From: Thermosulfurimonas sp. F29
GTDB taxonomy: Bacteria; Desulfobacterota; Thermodesulfobacteria; Thermodesulfobacteriales; Thermodesulfobacteriaceae
DNA: 64,000 nt
NCBI RefSeq assembly: GCF_019688735.1
Contig: NZ_JAIFYA010000001.1
Location: 1 to 64,000 of the forward strand
Reading direction: 5' to 3'
This document shows positions 41,261 to 58,671 of this stretch, one piece after another. The notes below the pieces were generated by a model that saw only the letters and a program-made list of their open reading frames with translations, searched no databases and had not been told where the DNA came from. Position 1 is the first letter of the stretch; the number at the start of each line of letters is the position of its first letter. The position numbers were made by a program, and so were the translations under genes.

Positions 41261-42499
41261 TCAGCGGTCGAGCGGACTCACCACCCCCGTGATTCTCCGT
41301 CCCACGATATGAGTGTAAATCATGGTGGTGCGCAGGCTTTTGTGACCGAGAAGTTCCTGGATGGTGCGAATGTCGTAGCCGTCCTCAAGAAGGTGGGTGG
41401 CGAAGCTGTGCCGCAGGGAATGCACCGTAGCGGGCTTTTCCACCCCGGCCTTCCGTAGCGCCTTTTTGAAGGCCCGTTGCACCGCACTGGGATGGATGTG
41501 ATGCCGACGCACGGTCTCGGTCCGCGGATCTACGGAAAGATCTTTTGAAGGAAACAGCCAGAACCAGGCCCATTCTTTCCCGGCCTCGGGATATTTACGC
41601 TCAAGCGCGTACGGCAGGTATACCCCGGCCACCCCGGCCCGCCGGTCCTGATGGTAAATCTCTCGGATTTTGGCAAGATGCACCTCAAGCTCCGGCGTTA
41701 ATTTCCGAGGAAACACGGTTACCCGGTCTTTGTCTCCCTTGCCGGAAAATACCGTGATCAACCCTCGTTCAAAATCCAGATCTTTTACCCGGAGTCTTAC
41801 CGTCTCGCTCACCCTCAAGCCCCCGCCGTACATGAGGGCACAGATCAGGTAATAGGTTTCCTCAAGTTCCGAGAGCACGGCCTCCACCTCTTCCCGGCTC
41901 AGCACCACCGGAAGTCTTCGCTTCTCTCGGGCCTTTACGGCCTCTATGTAGGGATCTATGTTTTTCTCCAGCACCTTCCGATAGAAAAAGACCAGGGCGT
42001 TCAGGGCCTGGTTCTGGGTGGCTGGCGCCACATTTCGCTCCACGGCTAGATAAGTCAAGAAATTCTGGAAATCTTCCCCTGAGACTTCTTGTGGTAGTTT
42101 GTATTCTAGGTAGTCCGCCAGTTGTCGAATCCAATCTAGGTAAGTTTTTTCTGTGCGGTAAGAATAGTGCTTACGTCGCAATATTTTCCTGGCTTTTTCT
42201 AGGACTTCAGCCCATTCCGATTCGGCATTTAGGTTTTCTTTTTGGGAAATTGTTTCAAGAAAGTAATTGTAAAGCTTTAGGGCCCTGTCTGCCTGTTCCA
42301 CTTGCCACGGTTCATATTTTTGCGATAATTTTAGAAGATACTGCTTTTTCTGAGGATGCGTAATGTTTTTTCCCGGCTCGAGATCCCATTCTCTCAAGGC
42401 TTGCATTACCCAGTTAACCATAAATGGGATCACTTTTTCTTTCTTTTCCACCTTCAAAAGAAACTTCCTAAATTCTTCCCACAATCCATCTTTTTTCAT
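41261..42499 (-). CDS. intI: Integron integrase (IntI-type tyrosine recombinase)
   Basis: The protein has 412 residues from the ATG at 42499; a GTG at 42511 is possible. The catalytic tetrad is visible: Arg229 in GGGLRVSETVRL, His360/Arg363 in HSLRHSFATH, His386 in LLGHKS and nucleophile Tyr395 in TTMIYTHI. Between them, PSKDLSVDPRTETVRRHHIH then PSAVQRAFKKAL is the extra segment found only in integron integrases, which binds the extrahelical bases of folded attC sites. An N-terminal extension of about 95 residues precedes the SAM-like core, making it longer than the roughly 337-residue IntI1. It is divergent from the cassettes, as in classical integrons. Confidence 0.95.
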   Translation of the reverse strand: MKKDGLWEEFRKFLLKVEKKEKVIPFMVNWVMQALREWDLEPGKNITHPQKKQYLLKLSQKYEPWQVEQADRALKLYNYFLETISQKENLNAESEWAEVLEKARKILRRKHYSYRTEKTYLDWIRQLADYLEYKLPQEVSGEDFQNFLTYLAVERNVAPATQNQALNALVFFYRKVLEKNIDPYIEAVKAREKRRLPVVLSREEVEAVLSELEETYYLICALMYGGGLRVSETVRLRVKDLDFERGLITVFSGKGDKDRVTVFPRKLTPELEVHLAKIREIYHQDRRAGVAGVYLPYALERKYPEAGKEWAWFWLFPSKDLSVDPRTETVRRHHIHPSAVQRAFKKALRKAGVEKPATVHSLRHSFATHLLEDGYDIRTIQELLGHKSLRTTMIYTHIVGRRITGVVSPLDR

Positions 42500-42994
42500 T
42501 TTTATTTGCACGCCAAAGGAAATTCTAGGAAATTATATTACCTCTCTTAATTTTGTCAAAAAAAGTTACTATTCCTTTTCAAAAGATTTATGCTATTTTC
42601 TTGAGATATTTTTAAATAATCTATCAAAATACTGAAATAGCAAAAGTTTCCAGAAAAAATTATTGAAAAAGCTGTTTGACTTTAGTGTAATTCTGATATA
42701 TAGCCAGATTTAATATAGCCTTAGAGGGGGGCTATCTAAGAAAGCATAAAAGATATGTTATAAAAAGAAAATCTCAAACGGATACGCATTCTCTAAATAG
42801 ATCAAGGTAAATGTAAAGGCTGGTGGTTCTCTAATTTAACTTGATTTCAAAGCAATTCTAATGGTAATATTCTTTAGTTCAGAGGTCAGGAGGGAGCCGA
42901 GGTAGAAAAAGAAGTTCTAAAGAGGCAAATCCAAACACTCCAGCAGAAGCCGCAATCAAGCAGTTGTTAAAACAGATAAACCAAAATAAAGAAC
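42500..42994. other. Integron leader / presumed attI region and eroded first cassette
   Basis: This AT-rich stretch separates intI from the first attC. It should contain the intI promoter, attI and the cassette promoter. A hairpin ATAGCC/GGCTAT lies near 42715-42736. No clear attI core can be fixed. A short frame without a start codon, ending QLLKQINQNKELITNRCT, runs into attC-1 at 43014. It may be the tail of a decayed first cassette gene. Confidence 0.45.
42676..42704 (+). promoter_or_regulatory. Candidate cassette promoter (Pc)
   Basis: TTGACT and TATAGC are separated by 17 bp (a TATATA at 15 bp is an alternative). It points towards the cassettes and lies between intI and the first attC, where Pc is expected. 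No expression evidence. Confidence 0.4.
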
Positions 42995-43062
42995 TTATAA
43001 CGAATCGCTGCACCTGACCGAAAATGCTGCCGCATTTTCGGCAGGTGAGTTCAATGTTAAGC
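42995..43062 (+). repeat. attC-1
   Basis: TTATAAC at the left and GTTAAGC at the right are the R'' and R' boxes. The interior pairs CACCTGACCGAAAATGC with GCATTTTCGGCAGGTG. A folded stem of this type is an integron attC. Confidence 0.85.
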
Positions 43063-43082
43063 CTTAAAATATGGAATAAACC

Positions 43083-43886
43083 ATGGCGGATATAACAAAC
43101 TGGTTACCGGCAATAAGTACAACATCTCTCTTTGCCTTAGCTCTGTGGTTATTCCGTTCATGGATTTCCGCAAGGCTTACAAAAAGTATAGAAAATGAAT
43201 TTAATGAGAAAATTGAAAATTTAAAATCAGAATTACGGACAAAAGAATCTACTATTGAATCTCTAAGAAGTGCTGCTATGTCTGGGCTGGTTAGTCGGCA
43301 GGCCAAATTGTATGAACGACAACTTGAAGCAATAGATCAAATTTGGGAGGCTGTAACCGAGCTTGGCAAGGCAAAAGGAATATCAGTGACGATGGCAATA
43401 GTTAAATATGAAGAGGCTGCTAAAGAAGCTGCTGCAAATCCACGTTTCAGACAAGTATTTGAAATCATGGGAGCAGGTTTTGATGTTAAAAATATCAAAC
43501 TTGGTACAGCAGCCAAAGCTCGTCCATTTTTGACCCCACTGGCATGGGCATATTACAACGCATATCAAGCGATAATTCTTCTAGATGTAATGAAATTTGA
43601 AACGTTAAGGCTTGGTCTTGAGTCACCGGAACGTTTTATTAATATAGATGGAGTAAAAGATATAGTAAAAGCTGTGTTGCCCCATCATTCTGATTATTTG
43701 GATAAATTTGGGAGTGGCGGCCTTCATTTCCTGCTTGATGAAATAGAACGTCTCCTACTTGTTGAACTACAGAATATACAAAAAGGCATTATAGCTGACC
43801 AAGAAAATACAGAAAGAGCTGCGGAAATATTAAAAGCATCAAATAAAGTGATTGAATCGATTACTAAAGAGACAAGCAAGGCTTAA
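43083..43886 (+). CDS. Cassette protein of unknown function, membrane-anchored coiled coil
   Basis: A 267-residue orphan cassette gene starting 20 bp after attC-1. It has one N-terminal membrane segment (TTSLFALALWLFRSWI). A charged coiled coil follows (NEFNEKIENLKSELRTKEST). The rest is a soluble helical domain that includes VRHTYPE-free sequence such as LTPLAWAYYNAYQAIILLD. No catalytic motif is evident. The stop TAA lies in the R'' box of attC-2, as usual for cassettes. Membrane-anchored helical proteins like this occur in defence and stress islands, but I assign no function. Confidence 0.75.
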   Translation: MADITNWLPAISTTSLFALALWLFRSWISARLTKSIENEFNEKIENLKSELRTKESTIESLRSAAMSGLVSRQAKLYERQLEAIDQIWEAVTELGKAKGISVTMAIVKYEEAAKEAAANPRFRQVFEIMGAGFDVKNIKLGTAAKARPFLTPLAWAYYNAYQAIILLDVMKFETLRLGLESPERFINIDGVKDIVKAVLPHHSDYLDKFGSGGLHFLLDEIERLLLVELQNIQKGIIADQENTERAAEILKASNKVIESITKETSKA

Positions 43887-43953
43887 CAATGTGCTTCACC
43901 TGACCGCTATTCCGCTGGCGCTTCATAGCGGCAGGTGAGCTTGGTCGTTAGCC
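43881..43953 (+). repeat. attC-2
   Basis: Boxes GCTTAAC and GTTAGCC bound an arm pair CACCTGACCGCTAT / ATAGCGGCAGGTG around TCCGCTGGCGCTTC. It contains the stop codon of the upstream gene. Confidence 0.92.
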
Positions 43954-43982
43954 CTATATATGAATGACGAATAAGGAAGGGT

Positions 43983-44639
43983 ATGACAATAATTGAAGGA
44001 CTGAATCAAGTAGAAAAAGATATTTTGAATGTGATAATAAAATGGGAGAAAGCAAATAATCACCGTGTGCCTTATGGTTTCTCTCATACTCTTCCCTACA
44101 ATGAGTTAGGGACGAGCCGATCTTCAGAAGAAGATATAAAAAGAACTCTAGAAAGGTTGGTTTAAAAGAAAATACTCAATAAAAAAGATGATGGTTCATA
44201 TATATTAACCGAAGAAACTTTCAATGCCTTAATGAAAAAAATGAATGGACATAAGCATAATGCGGATAAACATTATTTTAATGAGAATGTGTTAGCTGAA
44301 ATTGAAAAAGAATTTTCTAAGTGGAAAGAATTTTTAAATATTACTATAGGATTATTTAGTTTTAACTTAGCAATATCATGCCTTGGGACCAAAAATCCTA
44401 AATTATGGGCGCTTGTTTCATTTATATTTGTTGGAATTTTATTAGGTTATGGGAATAAGTACTTTCCTCAAAAAATCAAAGAATTACGAAAAGCGGACCT
44501 GAATAAAATAGATAAATTAACATTAAAAGGTCTAGAAGTGGAATATTTTGGTTTTAAGAATTTTTGGAAGCACTGCCCATTATATTTACTTGGTTTTTTA
44601 TTCTTGGCTTTATTAGCTTTGGGAGTAATTAAGGGCTAA
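43983..44639 (+). pseudogene. Cassette gene with an internal TAA (membrane protein of unknown function)
   Basis: A single frame runs from ATG 43983 to the stop at 44639 in the attC-3 R'' box, except for TAA at 44163-44165 after RTLERLV. The frame continues directly as KKILNKKDDGSYILTEETFN, so this is one gene with a nonsense codon. The N-terminal part looks like a small winged-helix/antitoxin-like domain (NQVEKDILNVIIKWEKANNH). The C-terminal part has two pairs of hydrophobic segments (ALVSFIFVGILLGYG; PLYLLGFLFLALLALGVI). The family is not recognised. Confidence 0.75.
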
Positions 44640-44705
44640 CAATGCGCTTCACTGGACTGGCATTACGCTGCGCTCCATGCCAGCCAGTGAGCTTGGTTGT
44701 TAGGA
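44634..44705 (+). repeat. attC-3
   Basis: Boxes GGCTAAC and GTTAGGA bound the arms CACTGGACTGGCAT / ATGCCAGCCAGTG. The core AATGCGCTTCAC is a widespread attC type. Confidence 0.93.
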
Positions 44706-44719
44706 AATTTAAAATCTAA

Positions 44720-45292
44720 ATGATCAGAACTTACAAAAAACAATTTGAATCTAAAAAGGTAGAAAAGATAGACAACCTAATAAAAAGGATTAAAAGAATA
44801 AAAATGCCAGGTAGTGTTAGTAAATATTATGCTCATGAATTATTATTATGTTTACAAGCGGGCGCTCTACTTGGATCTTTGTGTATAACCTCTGCTCTTT
44901 TAGAGATATTTGTAAGGGAATTAGCAATCAAATATTCAGCTTTAGCTTCATCAAATTCAGATCTTTATAAGAAATTGGCTCTTTTACAAAAACAGCTGGA
45001 AGAAAAAAGAAATTTAAGTTTTAAACAATTAATTAACGGTTTAGCTTCTTGTGGATTATTCTCAGAAGACGATGCTGAACAGGCGAAAGAATTTTATGAT
45101 AGTGTTCGTATTCCTATTCATCACGGATTACCGGCAAGATTTGTCGAAATACAAAACGATATAATAGCAGCTTTAAATGAAATATTTACTTTCCCAATTG
45201 GTATGCACGAATTTGAAGAAGTTATAGAAGATCGATCTTTGGATTTAATTGAAATAGTAATAGGTATTATTGAACGAAATAATTTTAAGTGA
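44720..45292 (+). CDS. Cassette protein, HEPN-like (RxxxxH motif)
   Basis: A 190-residue protein, almost all helical. Near residue 134, SVRIPIHHGL fits the HEPN ribonuclease motif R-x4-H followed by Gly. An earlier helix ITSALLEIFVRELAIKY is typical of HEPN/RiboL-PSP-like folds. No antitoxin gene is in the same cassette. HEPN proteins are common toxins and phage-defence RNases. This assignment rests on one motif and overall helicity, so it is tentative. Confidence 0.55.
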   Translation: MIRTYKKQFESKKVEKIDNLIKRIKRIKMPGSVSKYYAHELLLCLQAGALLGSLCITSALLEIFVRELAIKYSALASSNSDLYKKLALLQKQLEEKRNLSFKQLINGLASCGLFSEDDAEQAKEFYDSVRIPIHHGLPARFVEIQNDIIAALNEIFTFPIGMHEFEEVIEDRSLDLIEIVIGIIERNNFK

Positions 45293-45295
45293 ATT

Positions 45296-45358
45296 GTCTA
45301 ACAACCCGCTTCAGCGGACGGCGCTTTCCAGCGCCGCTGTTGAATTTAGACGTTAGGC
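45296..45358 (+). repeat. attC-4
   Basis: Boxes GTCTAAC and GTTAGGC with arms GCTTCAGCGGACGGCGCT / AGCGCCGCTG. Similar to the 61-bp attC group at 54-58 kb. Confidence 0.93.
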
Positions 45359-45383: not shown

Positions 45384-45851
45384 ATGAGCAAAATTCGTAT
45401 TCGAGTCGGTGACATTGAGATTGAATTTGAAGGCAGTGAAGAATTTATTAAAGAGCAAATTCCTGAACTCCTTCAGGAAATAGCTGATATGAAAGGACCG
45501 TTTACGGTAGAGGAAGAGGCGGAGGAAATGCCTCCAGAAGAACATCAGAAATTTATTGACTTTAGTGTAGCAACTATTGCGGAGAAGATAAACGCTAAAA
45601 CTGGCAAGGAATTGGTAGTCGCTGCAGCTGCTTACCTAACCTTCGTGGAGAACATCCCCTCGTTTTCCCGACGTGAGATTCTTAATGCTATGAAAGCCGC
45701 CTCGCATCACTACCAAAAGAATTACAGCAAAAACTTATCTCGATATCTACAGCAACTTCTTCGTGAGCAGATATTGAACCAAACTTCGTCCGGCACTTAT
45801 ACACTCTCTGCACCAGCTCGAAAGGAATTGGAGCGAAAAATTGTTGGATAA
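45384..45851 (+). CDS. Cassette protein, small acidic protein with a predicted winged helix
   Basis: A 155-residue protein with a good ribosome-binding site (AGGAGGAATTAG then ATG). The N-terminus is a beta-rich RIRVGDIEIEFEGSEEFIKE segment. The C-terminus (PSFSRREILNAMKAASHHY ... SSGTYTLSAPARKELE) looks like a winged-helix fold. It overlaps the next gene by 11 bp, so the pair is translationally coupled. By position it may be the partner or antitoxin of the HEPN-like protein that follows (inference). Confidence 0.65.
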   Translation: MSKIRIRVGDIEIEFEGSEEFIKEQIPELLQEIADMKGPFTVEEEAEEMPPEEHQKFIDFSVATIAEKINAKTGKELVVAAAAYLTFVENIPSFSRREILNAMKAASHHYQKNYSKNLSRYLQQLLREQILNQTSSGTYTLSAPARKELERKIVG

Positions 45852-46584
45852 AACTTTGCTAGTAGATATACTGCAAATATCAGATTTATCAAGAACGGAT
45901 AAACTTTTGCTTTGCTTGGCTGTAGATAGCAAGCGGCCCAAACAAGTTCGTGAGATACGTGACATTGCTTATGAAGCGGGGCTGCGGGAGGTTAAGAAGT
46001 GGAATGTGTCAGACTATCTAAGAAAAGCTGTGCCCTTTGTCGCTAACACTAAGGATGGATGGTGTCTGACCACAGCTGGCCAACAACGTGTGCGCGAGAT
46101 CCTTGAAAATAAGAACCTAGCTCTTTTGCCTCCCAAGGACGTTGCCGTTAATCTTCGCAAAGAATTGGAGCGGATACCCGAAGCCATAACGGCTGCTTTC
46201 GTTGAGGAAGCTATCAAATGTTATGAATACCAACTTTATAGGGCTTTTGTAGTGTTGTCTTGGACTGGCGCTGTCGCTGTATTATACGACCATATACTTT
46301 CTGATTCTGATCGGTTGCTGACTTTCAATGCTGAGGCCCGGCGACGTAATGCGAGATGGAGAGATGCTACAACTAAGGATGACTTGGCGCGCATGAAAGA
46401 AAGTGATTTCTTGGACATCTTGGAAGCTATTTCCGTGATTGGCAAGAATACCAAGCAGCAACTCAAGGAATGCTTGCGGCTTAGAAATGCCTGTGCACAT
46501 CCCAGCACCTTACAAATCGGCCCTCACAAGGTGGCGGCTCACTTGGAGGTTCTTATCTTGAATGTCTTCTCGAAATTCGTGTAA
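45841..46584 (+). CDS. Cassette protein, HEPN-type (RNxxxH), second gene of the pair
   Basis: A 247-residue protein with a TTG start inside the end of the upstream gene. The N-terminal third has a winged-helix-like region (KRPKQVREIRDIAYEAGL then DGWCLTTAGQQRV). The C-terminal half is helical and contains CLRLRNACAHPSTL, a classic HEPN RNxxxH motif. This looks like an RNA-cleaving effector paired with the preceding small protein. No characterised two-gene system is recognised with certainty. Confidence 0.7.
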   Translation: MLDKTLLVDILQISDLSRTDKLLLCLAVDSKRPKQVREIRDIAYEAGLREVKKWNVSDYLRKAVPFVANTKDGWCLTTAGQQRVREILENKNLALLPPKDVAVNLRKELERIPEAITAAFVEEAIKCYEYQLYRAFVVLSWTGAVAVLYDHILSDSDRLLTFNAEARRRNARWRDATTKDDLARMKESDFLDILEAISVIGKNTKQQLKECLRLRNACAHPSTLQIGPHKVAAHLEVLILNVFSKFV

Positions 46585-46658
46585 GCCTAAACGCGTCCGG
46601 CGGACGGGCTTCGCCTCGCTCCGCTCGGCTCCGCCCGCCGCTGACGCCCTCGTTAGAA
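46585..46658 (+). repeat. attC-5
   Basis: Left box GCCTAAA(C) is slightly degenerate; right box is GTTAGAA. The arms GCGTCCGGCGGACGGGC / GCCCGCCGCTGACGC are strongly paired around TTCGCCTCGCTCCGC. Confidence 0.88.
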
Positions 46659-46660
46659 AG

Positions 46661-47044
46661 ATGACTTTTATTTTAAATATAGCCGGTCCACCAGGTTCAG
46701 GCAAAACAACTTTAGCTAAAATTATTGCTAAAGCTTTAAATTGGAAATATATCGCCTATGATAATATAGAATCTACAGATATAGAAAAATTGTTTAAAAA
46801 TCCTAAAATGTGGGCTTTTCCAATGCAAGTTAAATTTCTAATTAGTAAAGTAACTTCCATTTTATTAGCATTAAATGAGAGATGTAATATTGTAATAGAT
46901 CGTTCTGTTTATGAAGATATGGATATTTTTGCGAAGTATTTTTTTCTTAAAGGTTATATATCTGGAAAAGATTATAAACTATATTGTTATTTATCTAATA
47001 TAATTTTAAGGGTGCTCCCAAAACCCCATCTTTTAATATATTAA
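46661..47044 (+). pseudogene. Deoxynucleoside kinase-like cassette gene, truncated by IS630
   Basis: The 5' part of a gene for a nucleoside kinase of the dNK/thymidine-kinase-like family. Walker A is GPPGSGKTT, and the ERS-type substrate motif appears as VIDRSVYEDMDIFAKYF. The protein breaks off after LPKPHLLIY, where the family continues into an LD-containing strand. The TA in this last codon is where the IS630-type element begins. No 3' half is found beyond the element, where an inverted attC follows. Family members are about 200 residues; only 120-127 remain. Confidence 0.8.
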
Positions 47045-48151
47045 TGGGAGCGGAAAATGTATGACAGGGGGAAATTTTTATGGTAAACTAATTTTATGAA
47101 AGATGCTCGCTATTTATCCCCAAAAGCACAGGAAGCCATAAGACTTAGAGCCGTCCGAGCTGTTCTCAATGGCCAGTCTCAAACCCAGGTGGCCAAAACT
47201 TTTGGTGTGGCCAGAGGAACGGTTTCGAGATGGCTCAAGATCTATCGGGAAAAAGGCGAAGAGGCCCTTTTGGCCAAACCTCGCGGACGACCTAAGGGAG
47301 GAAAGCTTTTAGGCTGGCAGGTAGCTACTATTTGCAACCTCATTCGAGATCGTTATCCAGACCAGATGAAGCTTCCCTTTGCCCTTTGGACCAGAGAGGC
47401 TGTGGGGCAGCTCATAGAGAGGGAGTTTGGGATCAAGCTATCGGTATGGACGGTAGGGCGGTATTTGAGGCGGTGGGGGTTTACGCCGCAGAAGCCTTTG
47501 AAGCGGGCTTATGAACAGAATCCTAAGGAAGTGAAGGCGTGGCTTGAGGAGGAATATCCACAGATCAAGCAGAAGGCTCGGGAGGAAGGAGCGGAGATTT
47601 ACTGGGGAGACGAGACGGGAATCAGGTCTGACCATCAGGCAGGAAGGAGTTGGGCCCCTAAGGGGGAGACCCCGGTGGTGGAAGTAAGCGGCAAGCGATT
47701 TCGGTTCAACATGATATCGGCCATAAGCAACCGAGGGAAGTTGAAATTCATGATTTTTGGGGAGCGGTTTAATACGGAGATATTTATCGAATTTTTGCGA
47801 AGGCTCATAAGATCCAACGAAAAGAGGAAGATATTTCTGATCGTTGACAATCATAGGGTGCATCATGCGAAGAAGGTGTCAGAGTGGGTGAGGAGACATA
47901 AAGGAGAGATAGAGCTTTTCTTTTTACCGAAATACAGTCCGGAGTTGAATCCGGATGAATATTTGAATCAAGATGTGAAGACAAATGCAGTGGGAAGGAG
48001 GAAGTCCCGGACGAAAGAAGAATTGATGGGCAACGTGAGGAGCTATTTGATGAGTACGCAGAGGCAGCCGGAGATAGTGAAGAGTTACTTTCGCGCCCCG
48101 GCAGTCAGATATGCCATGTAATGTCACACATTAATTGCTCGGATTAATATA
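47037..48151 (+). mobile_element. IS630-family element
   Basis: The left end TATATTAATGGGAGCG and the right end, read inward as TATATTAATCCGAGCA, form imperfect inverted repeats that continue as ATGTATGACA / ATGTGTGACA. TA is the expected target. It interrupts the kinase gene on the left and abuts attC-6 on the right. The two flanks did not belong together originally, so a deletion or inversion accompanied or preceded the insertion. Ends are accurate to a few bases. Confidence 0.82.
47096..48121 (+). CDS. IS630-family transposase
   Basis: A 341-residue DDE transposase. The N-terminal helix-turn-helix is NGQSQTQVAKTFGVARGTVS. The catalytic residues lie in IYWGDETGIRSD, IFLIVDNHRVHHA and FFLPKYSPELNPDEY, which is the D-34-E type arrangement of IS630/Tc1. 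The frame is intact, so the element may be active. Confidence 0.93.
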   Translation: MKDARYLSPKAQEAIRLRAVRAVLNGQSQTQVAKTFGVARGTVSRWLKIYREKGEEALLAKPRGRPKGGKLLGWQVATICNLIRDRYPDQMKLPFALWTREAVGQLIEREFGIKLSVWTVGRYLRRWGFTPQKPLKRAYEQNPKEVKAWLEEEYPQIKQKAREEGAEIYWGDETGIRSDHQAGRSWAPKGETPVVEVSGKRFRFNMISAISNRGKLKFMIFGERFNTEIFIEFLRRLIRSNEKRKIFLIVDNHRVHHAKKVSEWVRRHKGEIELFFLPKYSPELNPDEYLNQDVKTNAVGRRKSRTKEELMGNVRSYLMSTQRQPEIVKSYFRAPAVRYAM

Positions 48152-48211
48152 TAACGTCTAAAATCAGCGGCCCTCCAGTATTGCTAGGTCCTCTGAAAAG
48201 GTTTGTTAGCT
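48149..48211 (-). repeat. attC-6, inverted orientation
   Basis: On the minus strand, boxes AGCTAAC and GTTATAT bound AAACCTTTTCAG ... GGCCGCTGATTTTAGAC, clearly related to the 61-bp attC group at 54-58 kb. All other attC sites point the other way. It lies between the IS630 right end and IS1634 copy B, without a gene. Confidence 0.82.
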
Positions 48212-48218
48212 TTTTATA

Positions 48219-50072: not shown

Positions 50073-50073
50073 C

Positions 50074-50102
50074 TTGACTTTTTGTACAAATTATGGTATA
50101 AT
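50074..50102 (+). promoter_or_regulatory. Near-consensus sigma-70 promoter
   Basis: TTGACT and TATAAT are separated by exactly 17 bp, starting 2 bp outside the end of IS1634 copy B and pointing towards attC-7 and the DUF2971 gene at 50208. Probably the promoter of a former cassette, now driving the genes downstream. Confidence 0.65.
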
Positions 50103-50133
50103 GATTAAATACGGAGGGGGATATTAGGGGGCC

Positions 50134-50200
50134 CAGCAACAAGTCGCTTGAGCAGAACAGGTCTTCGATCTTTTCTGCTCAGCTGCGGCGTCTGTTAGAA
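50134..50200 (+). repeat. attC-7
   Basis: Degenerate left box CAGCAAC and right box GTTAGAA. The arms GAGCAGAA and TTCTGCTC pair across CAGGTCTTCGATCT, with flanking GTCGCTT / AGCTGCGGC. Different from the neighbouring attC group. Confidence 0.72.
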
Positions 50201-50207
50201 ATATGAA

Positions 50208-51222: not shown

Positions 51223-51276
51223 ACCTAACAAATCTTTTCACCCGATACAGCGGGCGGGTGAATTGGGACGTTAGAA
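51223..51276 (+). repeat. attC-8
   Basis: Boxes ACCTAAC and GTTAGAA with short arms TTTTCACCCG / CGGGTGAATT. The shortest attC here, at 54 bp. Confidence 0.88.
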
Positions 51277-51281
51277 TAACA

Positions 51282-52199: not shown

Positions 52200-52361
52200 C
52201 CCAAGTTTGACAGTCGGAAGGGGCTGGGGAATCTCAAGTGAGCATTTTCGGCCCGAAATAACCCCTAAATGCCCCTCTAACCCAAGTTTGACAGTCGGAA
52301 GGGGCTGGGGAATCTCAAGTGAGCATTTTCGGCCCGAAATAACCCCTAAATGCCCCTCTAA
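52200..52361. repeat. 81-bp tandem duplication of the IS1634 left end
   Basis: Two consecutive identical 81-bp units, each beginning CCCAAGTTTGACAGTCGG and ending GCCCCTCTAA. Copies A and B have only one unit. Confidence 0.93.
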
Positions 52362-52467
52362 TTCCCTCCTTCCACCTACGACTCATCCTCTTAGCCTTCA
52401 AATGTTGTGCTATGCCTACAAAATTACATCTTGACAAACAAGAAAATCATGCTACTATTTTAGTGCT

Positions 52468-54096
52468 ATGTATATCCGCACCAAAACCTTCAAAAACAAA
52501 GACGGCTCCACCAGGACCTACCTCTATATCGTTGAGGGCAAGCGGGTTAACGGAAAAGTACGCCAGAGGATCGTAGCCAACCTGGGACGGCTGGAAAAAC
52601 TTAAGGAGGGTCAACTGGACAAGCTGATAGAAGGGCTGGCCAGGTTTTCCCGGAGGCAATGGATAGAGGCTTGTGCCCGATCCCTTGAGGCCAAATGGGC
52701 CAAGGATTTCGGTCCGGCGTTGATCTTTAGAAGGCTATGGGAAGATCTTAAGCTTGATAGGATTCTGAGGAAGCTTCTTTCTGGGACGGAAATTTCCATA
52801 GATGTGGAAGAAGCGGTTTTTGCCATGGTTTTGAACAGGCTCTGTGACCCGGCCTCGAAGCTTGGGGTTAGCCGATGGAAGGAGACGGTATATCGGCCGG
52901 AGTTTGAGAGGCTTGAGCTTCATCATTTTTACCGGGCTCTTGATTTTTTGGCCGATCATAAGGACGAGATTGAGGTAGAGCTTTTCGAGAGGATAAAGGA
53001 TCTTTTCAGTCTGGAGCTTGATTTGGTGTTTTGGGACACGACGAGCGCGTATTTTGAGGGGAGAGGGGCGGAGGGGTTTTGCGAGTATGGATATTCGAAG
53101 GACCGGAGGCCGGACCGTGTGCAGGTGATATTGGGTTTACTTATGACGCGGGAGGGGATGCCGATAGGGCACGAGGTGTTTCCCGGGGCTACGGCGGATG
53201 TAGAGACATTTTGGGCGGTGCTTAAGGAGTTGCGGGGTCGGTTTCGGGTGAGGCGGGTGATTTTGGTGGCTGACCGTGGGATGGTGAGCCGGAAGATTTT
53301 GGAGGAGATCGAGGCTTTGGGGCTTGAGTATTTGGTGGGGGTGAGGATGCGGAAGCTTAGGGCCATGAAGGAGGTTTTGGGTAGAGGGGGCCGTTTCCGG
53401 AAGGTGAAAGGGAATTTGAGGGTAAAAGAGGTCTGGCATGAAGGCAGGCGTTACCTGGTTTGTTTTAATCCGGAGGAGGCGGAGAGGGAGAGGGCTGCGA
53501 GGGAGGAGGTGGTAAGGAAGCTTGAGGAGAAGCTTAAGGCGGGTGGTCTTAAGGGGCTTATAGGGAATAGGGGTTATCGTCGATATTTGAAGGTGAAGGG
53601 GGCGGAGGTTACGATAGATCGGGAGGTATTGGAGGAGGAGGCGCGGTATGATGGGAAGTATGTGCTTGAGACGAATACGGAGCTTGGGGTGGAGGAGGCG
53701 GCGCTGGCGTATAGGGATCTTTGGAGGGTGGAGAGGGCTTTTCGGGAGATCAAGAGTGGTTTGGAGCTGAGGCCTATTTATCACTGGACAGAGAAGCGGA
53801 TACGGGGCCACATAATGGTTTGCTTTTTGGCCTTTGTGCTGGAGGTGGTGATGATGAGGAGGCTTAAGGAGGCGGGATGTAAGGGGTCTTACAGGGAGGT
53901 GATGAGGGATCTTGAGAGGCTCAAGGCGGTGGAGGTTGCGGTTGACGGGAAGAAGTATTTGGTGAGGACGGAGCTTGAGGGGAGGGCGTATGAGGCGTTC
54001 AGGGCGGTGGGTATGAGGGTGCCGGGAAGGGTGCTGGAGGCAGGAGAGGAAGAAGGTGTTGTGGAACGTGGAGGTAGTGTGCCCGAAAACCGTTGA
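52468..54096 (+). CDS. IS1634-family transposase (copy C)
   Basis: A 542-residue DDE transposase identical in sequence to that at 48257-49885, with the same FWDTTSAYFEG, VADRGMVSRK and RDLWRVERAFREIK motifs. Intact frame. Starts about 107 bp inside the inner copy of the duplicated left end. Confidence 0.93.
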   Translation: MYIRTKTFKNKDGSTRTYLYIVEGKRVNGKVRQRIVANLGRLEKLKEGQLDKLIEGLARFSRRQWIEACARSLEAKWAKDFGPALIFRRLWEDLKLDRILRKLLSGTEISIDVEEAVFAMVLNRLCDPASKLGVSRWKETVYRPEFERLELHHFYRALDFLADHKDEIEVELFERIKDLFSLELDLVFWDTTSAYFEGRGAEGFCEYGYSKDRRPDRVQVILGLLMTREGMPIGHEVFPGATADVETFWAVLKELRGRFRVRRVILVADRGMVSRKILEEIEALGLEYLVGVRMRKLRAMKEVLGRGGRFRKVKGNLRVKEVWHEGRRYLVCFNPEEAERERAAREEVVRKLEEKLKAGGLKGLIGNRGYRRYLKVKGAEVTIDREVLEEEARYDGKYVLETNTELGVEEAALAYRDLWRVERAFREIKSGLELRPIYHWTEKRIRGHIMVCFLAFVLEVVMMRRLKEAGCKGSYREVMRDLERLKAVEVAVDGKKYLVRTELEGRAYEAFRAVGMRVPGRVLEAGEEEGVVERGGSVPENR

Positions 54097-54254
54097 TACA
54101 AGAGAATTTTTTTGCCCGGGGTGTCAAAGTTGGGTATAACTCATATTGGAGACAAAGTTATCTTTTTAGATAAAAATCAAAAAAATTTTATTCTTTATCG
54201 AGATAAAAATATAAAATCCATCTCAATCGTAATAGAAAATAAGATGCATGAAAA

Positions 54255-54315
54255 TTCTAACAAACCTCTTCAGCGGACCGGCGTATCCGCCGTCCGCTGA
54301 GTTTGGACGTTAGAA
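54255..54315 (+). repeat. attC-9
   Basis: Boxes TTCTAAC and GTTAGAA. Arms CTTCAGCGGACCGGCG / CGCCGTCCGCTGAG. A member of the homogeneous 61-bp group. Confidence 0.95.
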
Positions 54316-54339: not shown

Positions 54340-55203
54340 ATGATCATAAAAGATCGTGATTCAAGAAAGAGAGATATTAGAGAATTAAAAAAATTATTGT
54401 CTTTTTATAACCTTTCTCCAAAGCAAAGATTTCTCATAGAACGTGAAATATATGCAATTAAAAGAGGAGAATCAGGAGAAGAAGATTCTGCTTATTATAT
54501 TAATTTTTATTACGGCGACTCTAAAAATTGGGCTGTTATACATGATCTAAGAATAGAATTTAATGGAAAAGCCGCACAGATTGATCATATTCTAATAAAT
54601 CGCTTTTTCGATATATATGTATTAGAATCAAAAAATTATAGGTACGGCCTTCGAATAACAGAATCAGGAGAATTTGAAGTAAAATATAAGAATTACTATA
54701 TTGGAATTCCATCTCCAATCGAACAAAATAAGCGTCATATAGAATTACTTTCAAAGTTTATAAAAGCCCAAAATCTTTTACCAAAAAGAGTTGGAATAAA
54801 GATACAACCTCGTTTTTTTAATTATATATTAGTATCTCCAAAAGCAATAATTAGGCGTCCCAAATCAAAAAAATTTGATTTTTCCAATGTCATAAAAGCT
54901 GATATGTTAGCTACTATTATAGAAAAGAATACTGAAGAAATAAACACTTTAGATACTTTTAAATATGTCTTTAAAATGAGTTCTTTTTCTATAGTAGAAG
55001 AATTTGCTAAAAAGCTAGTAGCTTATCATAAACCTATTACTATAGATTGGATAAAAAGATTTGGCATTAAAGATGTAAAAAGATATTTTTGTTTTAAATG
55101 CGGTGCAATGATTTCAGAAAATGAGGCCAAATTTTGCTGGAATAATAAAAAGAAATTTAAAGGTAAGGCTTTTTGTTTCAAGTGTCAAAAAGAATTTTAT
55201 TAA
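54340..55203 (+). CDS. NERD-domain nuclease-like protein with C-terminal zinc ribbon
   Basis: A 287-residue cassette protein. The NERD domain starts near residue 45 with GESGEEDSAYYINFYYG. It carries the catalytic-type stretch GKAAQIDHILINRFFDIYVL followed by ESKNY, where the Asp, Glu and Lys correspond to the D-ExK nuclease core. The C-terminus has FCFKCGAMI and FCFKCQKEF, a four-cysteine zinc ribbon. NERD proteins are presumed nucleases, found in DNA-processing and defence contexts. The last codons overlap a small palindromic element, and the stop TAA lies in its left terminus. Confidence 0.85.
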   Translation: MIIKDRDSRKRDIRELKKLLSFYNLSPKQRFLIEREIYAIKRGESGEEDSAYYINFYYGDSKNWAVIHDLRIEFNGKAAQIDHILINRFFDIYVLESKNYRYGLRITESGEFEVKYKNYYIGIPSPIEQNKRHIELLSKFIKAQNLLPKRVGIKIQPRFFNYILVSPKAIIRRPKSKKFDFSNVIKADMLATIIEKNTEEINTLDTFKYVFKMSSFSIVEEFAKKLVAYHKPITIDWIKRFGIKDVKRYFCFKCGAMISENEAKFCWNNKKKFKGKAFCFKCQKEFY

Positions 55204-55297: not shown

Positions 55298-55302
55298 GAA
55301 TT

Positions 55303-55363
55303 GCCTAACAACCCGCTTCAGCGGATCGGCATAACCGCCGGCCGCTGAGTTTGGGCGTTAGAA
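55303..55363 (+). repeat. attC-10
   Basis: Boxes GCCTAAC and GTTAGAA. Arms CTTCAGCGGATCGGC / GCCGGCCGCTGAG. Member of the 61-bp group. Between it and the IS110 copy (55364-55528) no gene is visible; a GC-rich hairpin lies near 55420-55449. Confidence 0.95.
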
Positions 55364-55554: not shown

Positions 55555-56739
55555 CTAGGCATGGGGCACCCCCGCAGGAGCAAGTTTAGAAGGATCGAAG
55601 AATTGATTACGAGTAGAGAGGGCATAGATTACCCGGATCAGTTTGTTAACTACGGCTATCATGGCTTTTTTATAGCTTCTGAACTGGGTGTATTTCCTTC
55701 GGAAGTAATGCTGAAAAGTTTTCTCCCACTTGACCGTTCCTACGGCCATCTGGAAGAGGATATTTCGAAGGTAAGGATTTCCCTGTTTGGAGATGTTCAT
55801 ACGGACCTTCCATTTTCCGGATTGTTTGACCACGGGATCTGTTCCGGCATATTTGATCAGTTTTTTGGCGTTACTGAAGCGTTTTATGTTTTCGACTTCG
55901 GCCAGGAACCTGGAGGCGAGGTCGCGGGAGATGCCTTTTATGGAGGAGAGGCATTCCAGCTGAGTTTTCATGGTAGTTTCGATCTCCGTCTGGAGGTCTT
56001 TTTCCAGTTTTTCGATCATGGATTGGAGGAAGAAGATCTTTTGGATGTAAATTTGGAGGATTTTTTCCAGGCCTTTATGAGAGATCCCCACCGAGTTTTG
56101 GGCCACCTGCACGAGGTCTTGAGCGGAGAAGGAAGGTTTACGGCCCGGCAGTCGGGAGAGGATATAGTCTATTTTTCCCCAACCGGCTTTGGCAATTCTT
56201 TTAGCGGAGGGGTAGCGGCTGAGGATTTCAAGGAAGGCCCGAGAGAAGACATTGAAGTGTTTTTCGGCTTCGGGGAAAAGGGCGGCGAGGGAGTGTTTGA
56301 TTTGGGTTTTGGCCTCGGCGATTTCCTGTTTGAGTTTTTGGATTTGTCGGGCCAGGAGTTTGGTTTCGGAGGGGAGGGTAGCTGGTTTAAGGAGGTGGGG
56401 ATTGGAGAGGGCAAAGAGCGCCAGGAGGAAGGCGTCTTTTTTATCGGACTTAGAGGGGTTGTTAGCGGAGACGAACCGGACGAAGTGATGAACCATTTTA
56501 GGGTTGAGGAGGGATACCCGGAAGTCCTGGTCCAGGAGGAAGGCGAGGAGAGGGAGGTGGAAGCGTCCGGAGGATTCAAGGACGATATGGTTTGGGGTAT
56601 AGGCGGAGAGAGTTTGGAGGAAGTCTTCGAAGCCTTTGGAAGACATGGGGAGGTTTTTGGATACGAGCTTTCCCTTTTGTGGGTGAAGGATACAGAACTG
56701 GAAGGAATTTTTGGCGACATCGATACCTATGTAGAACAT
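55555..56739 (-). CDS. IS110-family transposase (copy 2)
   Basis: A 394-residue DEDD recombinase, sequence-identical to the product of 4985-6169, with GIDVAKNSFQ at the N-terminus and SIKGISRDLASRFLAEVE near residue 262-280. Intact. Confidence 0.92.
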   Translation of the reverse strand: MFYIGIDVAKNSFQFCILHPQKGKLVSKNLPMSSKGFEDFLQTLSAYTPNHIVLESSGRFHLPLLAFLLDQDFRVSLLNPKMVHHFVRFVSANNPSKSDKKDAFLLALFALSNPHLLKPATLPSETKLLARQIQKLKQEIAEAKTQIKHSLAALFPEAEKHFNVFSRAFLEILSRYPSAKRIAKAGWGKIDYILSRLPGRKPSFSAQDLVQVAQNSVGISHKGLEKILQIYIQKIFFLQSMIEKLEKDLQTEIETTMKTQLECLSSIKGISRDLASRFLAEVENIKRFSNAKKLIKYAGTDPVVKQSGKWKVRMNISKQGNPYLRNILFQMAVGTVKWEKTFQHYFRRKYTQFRSYKKAMIAVVNKLIRVIYALSTRNQFFDPSKLAPAGVPHA

Positions 56740-56936: not shown

Positions 56937-56948
56937 AGGAGGAAATAA

Positions 56949-57164
56949 ATGGAAGTAAGGTATGACATTTTATTGGAAAATATTAAAAAACTGCCCCTAT
57001 CTGAAAAGGAAGAACTTAAAAATTTAATAGAAAAATACATTATAGAAGAAAAACGAGAAAAAATTTATGAAAATTATTTGAAAAGTCTTAATGAATATAA
57101 AGAAAATAGATTGCAATTTTCTTCTGATATAAATGAACTTAGAAAAAATATGGAACTTGAATGA
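56949..57164 (+). CDS. Antitoxin of a RelE-type pair
   Basis: A 71-residue, highly charged helical protein (LPLSEKEELKNLIEKYIIEE). It starts 8 bp downstream of AGGAGG, and its end overlaps the next gene by four bases (ATGA). Size, charge and coupling to a RelE-like toxin identify it as the antitoxin of a type II system. The family is not recognised more precisely. IS110 lies directly upstream, so its original promoter has been displaced. Confidence 0.75.
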   Translation: MEVRYDILLENIKKLPLSEKEELKNLIEKYIIEEKREKIYENYLKSLNEYKENRLQFSSDINELRKNMELE

Positions 57165-57430
57165 TAGAAATATCATTTAGTTCATCTTTTAAGAGAGCTT
57201 TCAAAAAGAGAATAAAAAGAAATAAAGAATTAGAAGAGATATTTTGGAAGAAATTAGAGAAATTTATAGAAAATCCATTTGCTAAAGAGCTTAGAACTCA
57301 CAAATTAACAGGGAAATTGAAAGATTTATGGAGTTTTAGTTTAGAATATGATTTAAGGATTATATTCTTTTTTGCTGAAGATAATAAAGTTGTTTTGATT
57401 GATATAGGAACTCACGAAGAAGTTTATTAA
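57161..57430 (+). CDS. RelE/YafQ-type toxin
   Basis: An 89-residue basic protein. ISFSSSFKRAFKKRIKRNKE at the start and HKLTGKLKDLWSFSLEYDLR followed by IIFFF and IDIGTHEEVY at the end are the RelE/YafQ (mRNA interferase) pattern. It has the catalytic-type basic residues and a C-terminal His in THEEVY. It cleaves ribosome-bound mRNA when free of the antitoxin encoded just upstream. Addiction modules are typical stabilisers of large integrons. Confidence 0.85.
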   Translation: MIEISFSSSFKRAFKKRIKRNKELEEIFWKKLEKFIENPFAKELRTHKLTGKLKDLWSFSLEYDLRIIFFFAEDNKVVLIDIGTHEEVY

Positions 57431-57442
57431 AGAATAGATTTT

Positions 57443-57503
57443 TTCTAACAATCCGCTTCAGCGGATCGGCGGATACGCCGGCCGCTGATTTTAAGCGTTA
57501 GAA
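57443..57503 (+). repeat. attC-11
   Basis: Boxes TTCTAAC and GTTAGAA. Arms CTTCAGCGGATCGGCG / CGCCGGCCGCTGA. Member of the 61-bp group. Confidence 0.95.
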
Positions 57504-57526
57504 AAAATTAAATTTGAGGTATGAAT

Positions 57527-57745
57527 ATGAAAGTTACAGTGATAATAGAAAAAGATGAGTTTGGATATTATGCTTATTGTCCTGAATTAAAAGGCTGTCA
57601 TACACAGGGAGACACTTTAGACGAGGTTCTAAAAAATATTAAAGAAGCTGTAGAATTATATTTAGAAACTTTGGATGAGGAAGAAAAAAGAATTTTATTA
57701 AACAAGGAGATTTTGACTACTTCTTTAGAGGTAAAGGTTGCCTAA
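57527..57745 (+). CDS. hicB: HicB-type antitoxin
   Basis: I chose the second ATG (57527) because GAGG lies 7 bp upstream; the first ATG is at 57521. The protein has a HicB fold with VTVIIEKDEFGYYAYCPELK and GCHTQGDTLDEVLKNIKEAV (residues 3-42). It is a short form (72 residues) without the C-terminal DNA-binding domain. It overlaps the HicA gene by 8 bp. Confidence 0.9.
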   Translation: MKVTVIIEKDEFGYYAYCPELKGCHTQGDTLDEVLKNIKEAVELYLETLDEEEKRILLNKEILTTSLEVKVA

Positions 57746-57902
57746 ACTGCCAAGATTAACTGCTGTTGAAGCCGAAAAGTTATTATTACAAGCAGGTTTT
57801 AAATTGATCAGGAGTAAAGGAAGTCATAGGATTTACATGAAAGAAAACAAACGTTTTGTTTTACCCTTCCATATTGGTAAAGAAAAAGAAAGTTTAATCT
57901 AA
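57738..57902 (+). CDS. hicA: HicA-type toxin, TTG start, shortened C-terminus
   Basis: A 54-residue protein starting at TTG inside the hicB end. AVEAEKLLLQAGFKLIRSKG followed by SHRIYMKENKRFVLPFH is the HicA double-stranded RNA-binding fold, with the catalytic His of GSH. Typical HicA proteins continue for about 10 residues past the PxH motif with a conserved LRKAGL-type helix. Here the stop TAA lies in the R'' box of attC-12, so that helix is missing. It may be inactive, or a natural short version. Confidence 0.8.
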   Translation: MPKLPRLTAVEAEKLLLQAGFKLIRSKGSHRIYMKENKRFVLPFHIGKEKESLI

Positions 57903-57957
57903 CAACCCTCTTCAGCGGACCGGCGTAACCGCCGGCCGCTGATTTTGGGCGTTAGAT
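57897..57957 (+). repeat. attC-12
   Basis: Boxes ATCTAAC and GTTAGAT. Arms CTTCAGCGGACCGGCG / CGCCGGCCGCTGA. Member of the 61-bp group. Contains the hicA stop codon. Confidence 0.95.
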
Positions 57958-58014
57958 TGAAAAATTTTTCCAAAATATTAAAATGGAACTCAAAAAAACT
58001 TTGGAGAAATAACC

Positions 58015-58237
58015 ATGCTTGAATTATCCTTAAATAACATAGAACAAAAACTTTCAAAGCTTACTAATAGAAGAGTTATTAGAGCTTGAAGAAAAAATAT
58101 TAAAGACAATAAAAAAGAAAATTAAAGAGGAAAAGCCTGAAGACTGGAAAAAAGATTTTTTAAGTATTTCAGTATGGGATCATTTAGAAAATAAGTTTGA
58201 AATAAAAATAAATAAATGGAAGATAGAAACATTTTAA
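58015..58237 (+). pseudogene. VapB-type antitoxin, frameshifted
   Basis: The frame starting at ATG 58015 (MLELSLNNIEQKLSKLTN, preceded by TTGGAG) stops early at a TGA. In the next frame the protein continues as EELLELEEKILKTIKKKIKE and KDFLSISVWDHLENKF, ending at 58237. One extra A after ACTAAT (near 58067) explains the break. Position and overlap with the PIN-domain gene identify it as that toxin's antitoxin. Confidence 0.65.
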
Positions 58238-58616
58238 TTGATACTAGCATAATAATAGAATTCTTACGAAAGAAAGACAAACGAAATACTTATTTATGGA
58301 AAGTAAAAGAAGAAGGTTTTAACTGTTTTATTTCAACTATTACTGTATTTGAGTTGTATGCTGGAGCTATAACAGATAGACATAAACAAGATTTAGAGAA
58401 GCTATTAAGATGGATCGAATACCCTTTACACAAGAAATAGCTAAGCGTTCGGCGGAGATTTATAAAAGATTAAAAGCTAATAATCAGCTGATAGAATTTA
58501 GAGATATTTTTATAGGAGCAACTGCTTTAGAAATGGAGCTTCCTCTAATAACATTAAACGAAGTTCATTTTAATCGGATTAAAGGAATCAAAATATATGA
58601 TAGAAACAATCTCTAA
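58216..58616 (+). pseudogene. VapC-type PIN-domain toxin, frameshifted
   Basis: The first frame gives ILIDTSIIIEFLRKKDKR and TITVFELYAGAI, holding the first two acidic positions of the PIN nuclease. After RWIEY the frame shifts near 58425. The continuing protein reads IPFTQEIAKRSAEIYKRL, then EFRDIFIGATALEMELPLIT and LNEVHFNRIKGI, with the remaining PIN positions. The gene is therefore VapC-like but split. The stop lies in the attC-13 R'' box. Sequencing error must be excluded because the antitoxin is also frameshifted. Confidence 0.75.
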
Positions 58617-58671
58617 CAAACCTCTTCAGCGGACCGGCGAAACCGCCGGCCGCTGAGTTTGGGCGTTAGGA
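58611..58671 (+). repeat. attC-13, last site of the array
   Basis: Boxes CTCTAAC and GTTAGGA. Arms CTTCAGCGGACCGGCG / CGCCGGCCGCTGAG. Member of the 61-bp group. Beyond it starts the ribosomal operon downstream region. Confidence 0.95.

What the first reader, a model, noticed from the sequence alone, without database searches (positions are those of the whole stretch)
41261..58671. Large chromosomal integron in a probable thermophile, inserted between cca and the ribosomal operon
An IntI-type recombinase with the integrase-specific segment between its catalytic Arg and His is followed by thirteen attC-like sites spaced by AT-rich ORFs, many with stop codons inside the R'' box. This is the architecture of a sedentary integron. 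It lies directly between a CCA-adding enzyme and rplQ. Integrons are known mainly from mesophilic Proteobacteria; a multi-cassette array in a lineage that looks thermophilic would be unusual.
Basis: partly seen in the sequence, partly recalled or inferred. Interest (0 to 1): 0.85.

Follow-up and report, generated by a model that had tools for sequence, protein, structure and literature searches.

The report
Sedentary integron in a likely thermophile
The chromosome of this likely heat-loving bacterium holds a complete-looking integron, a gene-capture platform with an integrase gene and a row of 13 hairpin-type sites; it probably still captures and shuffles genes at high temperature, although its predicted hairpins look no more heat-resistant than those of other integrons.

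Summary
Confirmed: a sedentary chromosomal integron between cca and rplQ. The integrase passes the curated integron-integrase model (422 bits, cut-off 265), fails those for XerC and XerD, and keeps the catalytic residues and the IntI-specific segment. A covariance model built from 10 attC sites of other organisms finds 10 of the 13 sites at E<=8e-5 and an 11th at 0.02; at E<=0.01 it finds nothing outside the array in the 2.35 Mb genome. Two sites are atypical, one is inverted. An attI is predicted by comparison with two other genomes. The host is related to Thermosulfurimonas and encodes full-length reverse gyrase. 'Unusual in thermophiles' is not supported in this phylum: IntI occurs in 5 of 16 sampled genomes with reverse gyrase and 103 of 281 without. 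The integrase falls in a 13-row clade whose four named members are Thermosulfurimonas, Thermodesulfatator or Thermodesulfobacteriaceae. Ordinary in kind, uncommon in setting; activity untested.

The parts
41261..42511 (-). intI, 416 aa integron integrase from the GTG at 42511 (start codon uncertain: one database entry of this protein has 381 aa); predicted catalytic residues R233, K258, H364, R367, H390, Y399; IntI-specific segment about 302-338; about 100 residues before the SAM-like domain
42532..42559 (-). predicted intI promoter, TTGACA-16-TATAAT
   Evidence: 12 of 12 consensus matches
42676..42704 (+). predicted cassette promoter Pc, TTGACT-17-TATAGC (weak -10); a TTGAC box lies 164-185 nt from the assumed intI start in 4 of 5 loci compared
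42722..42763 (+). predicted attI; insertion point G^TT at 42757/42758; motif shared with T. dismutans (L020) and G292 (L092), sequences diverge after the core
   Evidence: (L092 motif seen by eye in the printed sequence)
42996..43061 (+). attC c01 (marginal model score); cassette 1 (42758-43056) has no plus-strand ORF of 60 aa or more
   Evidence: (E=0.02)
43083..43886 (+). cassette 2 ORF, 267 aa, no Pfam family; best relative 74% (metagenome), 59% Desulfobulbus, 50% Aeromonas, 47% Pseudomonas
43882..43952 (+). attC c02
   Evidence: E=2.4e-7
43983..44639 (+). cassette 3: one reading frame with an in-frame TAA at 44163-44165, then a 135 aa ORF
44635..44704 (+). attC c03
   Evidence: E=8.6e-7
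44720..45292 (+). cassette 4 ORF, 190 aa, unknown
45297..45357 (+). attC c04
   Evidence: E=2e-10
45384..46584 (+). cassette 5, two ORFs (155 and 247 aa); relatives in the same order in a Chloroflexi locus that also encodes an IntI (L078)
46582..46660 (+). attC c05, atypical (R'' TAAACG), not hit by the model
46661..47044 (+). cassette 6 ORF, deoxynucleoside-kinase-like, cut by IS630
47044..48147 (+). IS630-family element (transposase 47096-48121); ends read by eye, approximate
48150..48210 (-). attC c06, inverted, between IS630 and IS1634
   Evidence: E=8e-5
48214..50077 (-). IS1634-family copy, identical inverted repeat of the next copy
50128..50203 (+). attC c07, degenerate R'', not hit by the model
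50208..51215 (+). cassette 8 ORF, DUF2971, 335 aa; weak match to candidate defence PDC-S31 (best 8.7e-07)
51224..51275 (+). attC c08
   Evidence: E=1.7e-8
51258..52199 (+). cassette 9 ORF, 313 aa, weak HEPN-like match, under the Pfam cut-off
52276..54139 (+). second IS1634-family copy; flanked by TATAA (by eye), with an 81 nt end duplicate at 52200-52280
54256..54314 (+). attC c09
   Evidence: E=4.5e-10
54340..55203 (+). cassette 10 ORF, NERD domain, 287 aa; relatives in T. dismutans (84% over 67%) and Thermodesulfatator indicus (60%)
55304..55362 (+). attC c10
   Evidence: E=2.8e-10
55555..56739 (-). IS110-family transposase (element ends not determined)
56949..57430 (+). 71 aa ORF without a Pfam match and a YafQ/RelE-like toxin ORF, arranged like a toxin-antitoxin pair
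57444..57502 (+). attC c11
   Evidence: E=1e-9
57521..57902 (+). HicB/HicA-like cassette; HicA shorter than its T. dismutans relative; same cassette in T. dismutans (92.7% over 439 nt) and G292 (82.5% over 508 nt)
57898..57956 (+). attC c12
   Evidence: E=1e-10
58216..58616 (+). PIN-domain ORF split over two frames (frameshifted)
58612..58670 (+). attC c13, the last recognisable site, 129 nt before the rplQ stop codon
   Evidence: (E=8.5e-11)
58800..59435 (-). rplQ (ribosomal protein L17), chromosomal neighbour at the far end of the array
39557..41071 (-). cca-type nucleotidyltransferase, chromosomal neighbour at the integrase end

Best explanation
This is a sedentary chromosomal integron with an intact integrase gene and 13 attC-like sites (one inverted, two atypical), which likely captures, excises and reshuffles gene cassettes at a predicted attI beside the integrase. 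Shown by sequence: the integrase family, its catalytic motifs and IntI-specific segment, the sites, the one-way array of small AT-rich ORFs, four IS copies inside it, and the location between cca and rplQ. Inferred: IntI binds the folded bottom strand of attC, cuts at G^TT and joins a circular cassette to attI at 42757/42758, where a predicted Pc would transcribe it; older cassettes would lie towards rplQ. Inferred: the host grows hot (reverse gyrase, relatives), and there the GC-rich inner stem of attC should stay folded while the AT-rich R box is mostly open, so the protein would have to hold the R box. Inferred: the far end of the array is an old chromosomal anchor at the 3' end of rplQ, because two congeners have an attC overlapping the rplQ stop codon and a third has a weak relic there.
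For: IntI. attC by an external model; against shuffles. attI: motif shared with T. dismutans and G292, divergence right after the core. Promoter of intI 12/12. The HicBA cassette is shared with T. dismutans, whose integrase has other neighbours (92.7% over 439 nt), and with the array of G292 (82.5% over 508 nt; its chromosomal neighbours were not inspected). Thermophily; reverse gyrase also over the cut-off in 4 of 5 other genomes of the order picked for their IntI (the fifth, G008, is 64% complete and shows pieces). IntI clade of 13 rows, SH-aLRT 100. rplQ anchor: attC overlapping the rplQ stop in G027 and G024, weak relic in G028. Stem behaviour.
Against: No recombination, expression or growth data. 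The array shows decay: 2 of 13 sites atypical, one inverted, four IS copies, a nonsense codon in cassette 3, a cut kinase gene, a frameshifted PIN gene, a shortened HicA. Pc is weak in the window (-10 TATAGC) and no TTGAC box was found within 420 nt of intI in G292. The rplQ anchor is absent in 2 of 6 genomes of the genus (G025, G026), and in G026 rplQ and cca lie side by side (115 nt between the matched stretches) without an integron. The G028 relic is found only when that stretch alone is searched, not at E<=0.1 in the wider search. Hairpin energies above about 55 C are extrapolations, and the R-box pairing values rise again at 75 C, which is not physical.
Confidence: 0.9

Rival explanations
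1. A fossil integron: the structure is real but cassette movement has ended, and the array is being eroded by insertion sequences.
For: Four IS copies, an inverted attC, broken cassette genes; the T. dismutans integrase has lost most of the IntI-specific segment in frame; 6 of the 12 genomes of the order with attC sites gave no IntI at E<=1e-60.
Against: The window's integrase is open and keeps all six catalytic residues and its promoter; 10 of 13 attC sites are well formed; the integrase-proximal attC c02 resembles DNA in the G292 array (89.7% over 68 nt) and near the Brocadia integrase (86.4% over 66 nt), as expected of capture from a shared pool.
Confidence: 0.25
2. The whole integron is a recent arrival from mesophilic bacteria and not a long resident of the thermophile lineage.
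For: IntI at E<=1e-60 is in only 4 of 30 genomes of the family, the window's included; integrase neighbours differ between species (glutamine amidotransferase in L009, acyl-CoA dehydrogenase in L010, cca here); cassette 2 relatives include mesophilic Proteobacteria.
Against: The integrase falls in a 13-row clade (SH-aLRT 100) whose four named members are Thermosulfurimonas, Thermodesulfatator or Thermodesulfobacteriaceae; attC sites or a relic lie at rplQ in 3 further congeners; attC sites are in 12 of 41 genomes of the order. Movement between thermophiles is not excluded.
Confidence: 0.1
3. Not an integron: a Xer or phage-type recombinase beside chance hairpins.
For: Other tyrosine-recombinase-like matches are many in this genome.
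Against: XerC and XerD models score under half their cut-offs, the integron model far above its own; 0.025 sites per shuffle; no attC hit elsewhere in the genome at E<=0.01.
Confidence: 0.01

Closest known systems
Sedentary chromosomal integrons (IntegronFinder 'complete integron' with more than 10 attC; Vibrio superintegron type)
   Same: IntI with its specific segment, attI beside it, divergent intI, one-way cassette array, over 10 attC, chromosomal; the 10-attC threshold is from PMC9024848, section 3.1 (read)
   Different: Host with reverse gyrase; about 13 cassettes; heavy IS load; far end at rplQ (recalled: Vibrio integrons lie near another ribosomal gene, rplT)
Integron of Thermosulfurimonas dismutans S95 (contig NZ_LWLG01000017)
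   Same: Same integrase clade, attI motif, attC type, and one shared HicBA cassette
   Different: Other chromosomal place; integrase lacks about 52 residues with most of the IntI-specific segment; 8 attC hits beside it
Integrons of Thermodesulfatator-type genomes (G228, contig length equal to the T. indicus DSM 15286 record; G292)
   Same: Same order, reverse gyrase, intI plus attC arrays
   Different: G228 integrases are 56-57% identical and were not in the tree; a T. indicus integrase that NCBI names 'integron integrase' (P0029) falls outside the 13-row clade; G292 is inside it
Archaeal integrons and a hot-spring Spirochaetota integrase (PMC9668308, passages read)
   Same: Integrons outside the usual mesophilic Proteobacteria, one host from a hot spring
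   Different: Other hosts; the words thermophil and hydrothermal have 0 occurrences in its main text

Membership tests
Integron | IntI of the integron subfamily with the additional IntI segment | tested here: met
   TIGR02249 422.3 bits, cut-off 265; segment aligned to 2a3v
Integron | At least two attC sites beside intI | tested here: met
   10 of 13 at E<=8e-5 with an external model
Integron | attI next to intI with G^TT core | tested here: inconclusive
   predicted by comparison of three loci, no recombination assay
Integron | Cassette promoter Pc | tested here: inconclusive
   TTGACT-17-TATAGC; TTGAC box at like distance in 4 of 5 loci
Integron | Cassettes that move (attC x attI recombination) | not testable with these tools
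   indirect only: HicBA cassette in three genomes
Integron | attC folds on the bottom strand with extrahelical bases | tested here: inconclusive
   stems with bulges predicted; bulge identity not tested
Sedentary chromosomal integron | Chromosomal place, more than 10 attC, no transposon or plasmid carrying it | tested here: met
   11 model hits plus 2 atypical sites; rplQ/rpoA and cca as neighbours; no test for a carrying element beyond the ORFs seen
XerC/XerD | Equivalog score above cut-off | tested here: not met
   157.5 of 335.15 and 156.5 of 329.6 bits
Thermophile host | Full-length reverse gyrase | tested here: met
   1171.9 bits, cut-off 471.7; of 14 control genomes 4 are over the cut-off: T. 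maritima, M. jannaschii, S. acidocaldarius, Thermus composti
SOS-regulated integron | LexA box in the intI promoter | not tested
   LexA motif of this group not known to me; passages of PMC3108266 say that delta-group LexA recognises divergent motifs

The most novel reading that the evidence does not exclude
A thermophile lineage of integrons works near 70 C on single-stranded attC hairpins that have not been strengthened for heat: only the GC-rich inner stem is folded, the invariant AT-rich R box is open and must be closed by the integrase, and the array is tethered to the chromosome at the stop codon of rplQ, where the terminal attC core supplies the TAA and may outlive the integron as part of the ribosomal operon.
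Probability: 0.3. Interest if true: 0.75.

Novelty: new member of a known kind. Interest (0 to 1): 0.5.

Why it matters
Integron recombination depends on a folded single DNA strand (recalled). A lineage that carries integrons together with reverse gyrase makes it testable whether this chemistry works near 70 C and whether the protein, rather than the DNA, was adapted. It also offers a likely thermostable IntI family of about a dozen sequences for structural work, and a chromosomal anchor at a ribosomal gene's stop codon that can be followed across species.

Tried and rejected
Heat-adapted attC hairpins: not seen. 13 window sites plus 25 sites from T. dismutans, G292 and G228 against 30 sites from other integrons: folding energy at 70 C p=0.76, Tm p=0.96, paired GC p=0.86. 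At 37 C the window's sites are nominally stronger (median -18.0 against -13.4 kcal/mol, p=0.07; window plus thermophiles p=0.15). Dropped before the count: 13 of the 38 matches (9 duplicates from L124, 2 reverse readings, 1 partial match, 1 site of Desulfothermus, L073). The 30 come from the 44 loci that I gave; the growth temperatures of their hosts were not checked; several of the 30 and 1 of the 25 are seeds of the model.

Model seeds: 10 of the 15 candidate sites outside T. dismutans printed; five (L033, L051, L053, one of L058, L071) dropped by eye as odd or of unclear direction. One seed (L095) is from G228, of the same order as the host.

A textbook R-box pattern found only c12; it was loosened to the boxes seen in the array before the shuffle test.

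Integrons rarer in reverse-gyrase genomes: not seen, 5 of 16 against 103 of 281, p=0.79; without the window's own genome 4 of 15, p=0.58.

A fourteenth attC overlapping rplQ in the window itself (58748-58804): only 2.5 bits, 3.0 on the other strand; not counted.

Base-by-base empty site: G026 has rplQ and cca side by side, but the stretch between them gave no alignment with the window. Rfam at gathering thresholds has no match in the array. IntegronFinder could not be run. The cassette 2 protein could not be folded (tool off).

Papers: no hits for Thermosulfurimonas with integron, chromosomal integron with Thermodesulfobacteri, or attC with rplQ and integron. One hit each (a sul4 paper; a TatC paper), seen as listings only. 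Searches were wider; only listings seen apart from the papers cited. The main text of the T. dismutans genome paper (PMC4911364) has 0 occurrences of 'integron' or 'integrase'. Only open-licence PMC papers were searched and no supplements; complete Thermodesulfatator genomes may stand in published integron survey tables.

Tree: 54 of 59 rows used; five dropped before building (short integrase rows L022, L030, L033, L073 and one own recombinase). Quick method, SH-aLRT only; one Xer outgroup on a very long branch; the 13-row group was named before building; L010 and P0006 in it are the same sequence or nearly so.


Full report
What is there. Between cca (39557-41071, -) and rplQ (58800-59435, -; Pfam) lies about 17.7 kb of DNA with cassettes of 29-48% GC against 60% in both flanks. 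At its cca end an integrase gene is read on the minus strand (41261-42511); the rest holds small ORFs read on the plus strand, apart from insertion sequences, separated by attC-like palindromes.

The integrase. It scores 422.3 bits on NCBI's integron-integrase model (cut-off 265) and under half of the XerC and XerD cut-offs. Its best solved relative is the integron integrase 2a3v, E=1.1e-82, aligned through the segment ALERKYP...VRRHH. By motif the catalytic residues are R233, K258, H364, R367, H390 and Y399 (which motifs are catalytic is recalled). The start codon is uncertain: one database entry for this protein has 381 aa. In a tree of 54 rows it sits in a 13-row clade with SH-aLRT 100; the four named members are Thermosulfurimonas (two), Thermodesulfatator and a Thermodesulfobacteriaceae bacterium. 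Members are 73-86% identical to it where compared at full length. Apart from partial members of that clade, the other relatives in the list are 51-59% identical.

The sites. Thirteen sites were taken from the sequence. To avoid circularity a covariance model was built from 10 attCs of other organisms, none of this genus, one from G228 of the same order. It finds 10 of the 13 at E<=8e-5, all in array orientation except c06, and c01 at E=0.02; c05 and c07 are missed. The other 8 matches at E<=1 in the 64 kb are reverse-strand readings of the same sites. In the 2.35 Mb genome it gives 10 matches at E<=0.01, all in the array. A pattern-and-fold finder, loosened after a textbook pattern found only one site, gave 7 plus-strand sites, all in the array, against a mean of 0.025 in 40 shuffles.

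attI and promoters. The sequence CTAAGAAAGYATAAAAG..ATGTTA is shared by the window and T. dismutans on the array side of intI, and a like motif (ATCTAATTAAAAGATATGTTAG) is in G292; sequences diverge after it, as expected of an attI/cassette joint. This puts the insertion point at 42757/42758. intI has a 12/12 promoter match. Pc is only suggested: a TTGAC box 164-185 nt from the assumed intI start in 4 of 5 loci, with a weak -10 in the window; one of the four is cut short by its contig, and G292 has none.

Cassettes. Families found include DUF2971, NERD, a YafQ/RelE-like toxin beside a 71 aa ORF, HicB/HicA, a frameshifted PIN gene, a weakly HEPN-like protein and a cut deoxynucleoside kinase; defence-library matches are weak (best 8.7e-07). 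Several are broken: a nonsense codon in cassette 3, the frameshift, the shortened HicA. Stop codons lie in R'' for 4 of 13 sites. The HicBA cassette recurs in T. dismutans (92.7% over 439 nt) and G292 (82.5% over 508 nt). The c02 attC is 86.4% identical over 66 nt to DNA about 1.6 kb from the integrase of Candidatus Brocadia pituitae and 89.7% over 68 nt to the G292 array. IS copies: one IS630, two identical inverted IS1634-type, one IS110.

The host. The genome encodes full-length reverse gyrase and a 16S rRNA of 63.8% GC. T. dismutans was grown at 65 C (PMC4911364, one passage). The host's own name is hidden; strain F29 (named in PMC12998232, passages) is a guess only. No growth temperature was measured or found for the host.

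How common. IntI at E<=1e-60: 4 of 30 genomes of the family, the window's included, and 108 of 297 of the phylum sample. Reverse gyrase: 16 of 297. Both: 5 (G000, G133, G180, G228, G292), so IntI in 5 of 16 against 103 of 281 (Fisher p=0.79). attC sites in 12 of 41 genomes of the order; 6 of these 12 gave no IntI at that threshold (G013, G016, G021, G024, G027; G271), some of them incomplete genomes. Integrons in this phylum are already in print (Desulfobacterota named in PMC9668308, passages); a vent-microbiome paper that used IntegronFinder has 0 occurrences of Thermosulfurimonas or Thermodesulf in its main text (PMC10295459, passages).

Heat and hairpins. With DNA parameters, window sites have a median folding energy of -8.8 kcal/mol at 70 C, other thermophile-order sites -8.0, other integrons' sites -8.3 (13, 25 and 30 sites; p=0.76). 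At 37 C the window's sites are nominally stronger (-18.0 against -13.4, p=0.07). The inner stem stays paired (median 0.95 in the window at 75 C), the R box does not (0.62 at 37 C, 0.19 at 55 C, 0.30 at 75 C); the other two groups behave alike. Values above 55 C are extrapolations. This speaks against DNA-level heat adaptation; that the protein compensates is inference.

The rplQ end. In congeners G027 and G024 an attC on the opposite strand overlaps the rplQ stop codon: the model match covers the last 5 nt of rplQ, and the TAA is the complement of the R' core. G027 has three attCs before its contig ends; G024 has one at this place, followed by a cobalamin riboswitch and cbiK, and three more on another contig. 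G028 has a weak relic at the same place (14.3 bits, E=0.0015 when 321 nt were searched; not at E<=0.1). G025 and G026 have none; in G026 rplQ and cca are side by side, 115 nt between the matched stretches. In the window the last good attC ends 129 nt before the rplQ stop. So 4 of 6 genomes of the genus have an array, a single site or a relic at rplQ. An old anchor there is the simplest reading; G024, G027 and G028 are close relatives by rplQ (86-98% identity), so these are not three independent cases.

Verdict. It is a member of a known kind in an uncommon setting. Rarity among thermophiles is not supported within this phylum. Activity is untested.

Noticed in passing
L020 9974-11077 (T. dismutans S95): Its integrase lacks about 52 residues (window residues 273-324), including most of the IntI-specific segment, in frame; probably inactive, while the attC array remains.
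   Followed up: partly
L136 1070-1128, L137 787-854, L138 837-873: attC, or in L138 a weak relic, overlapping or directly after the rplQ stop codon in three congeners; in L137 it is a single site followed by a cobalamin riboswitch and cbiK.
   Followed up: yes
window 48150-48210: Inverted attC squeezed between an IS630 end and an IS1634-type end; by eye the left IS1634 copy shows no target duplication while the right one is flanked by TATAA.
   Followed up: partly
window 52200-52280: 81 nt tandem duplicate of the IS1634-type end, also complementary to 49992-50072.
   Followed up: no
window 50074-50102: TTGACT-17-TATAAT promoter-like sequence just outside the left IS1634 copy, pointing towards cassettes 8 and 9.
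   Followed up: no
G013 contigs C7 and C11: 13 attC matches in a reverse-gyrase genome of the same family with no integrase at E<=1e-60: cassette arrays without an integrase.
   Followed up: no
L078 4009-5026: The two-gene cassette 5 has relatives in the same order (37% and 48% identity) in a Chloroflexi locus that also encodes an IntI; attC sites there were not checked.
   Followed up: no
window 43083-43886: 267 aa protein without a Pfam family; 15 positions (several Trp, Arg, Pro) invariant in an alignment of 28 sequences; named hosts of relatives include Desulfobulbus, Thiodiazotropha, Aeromonas and Pseudomonas.
   Followed up: partly
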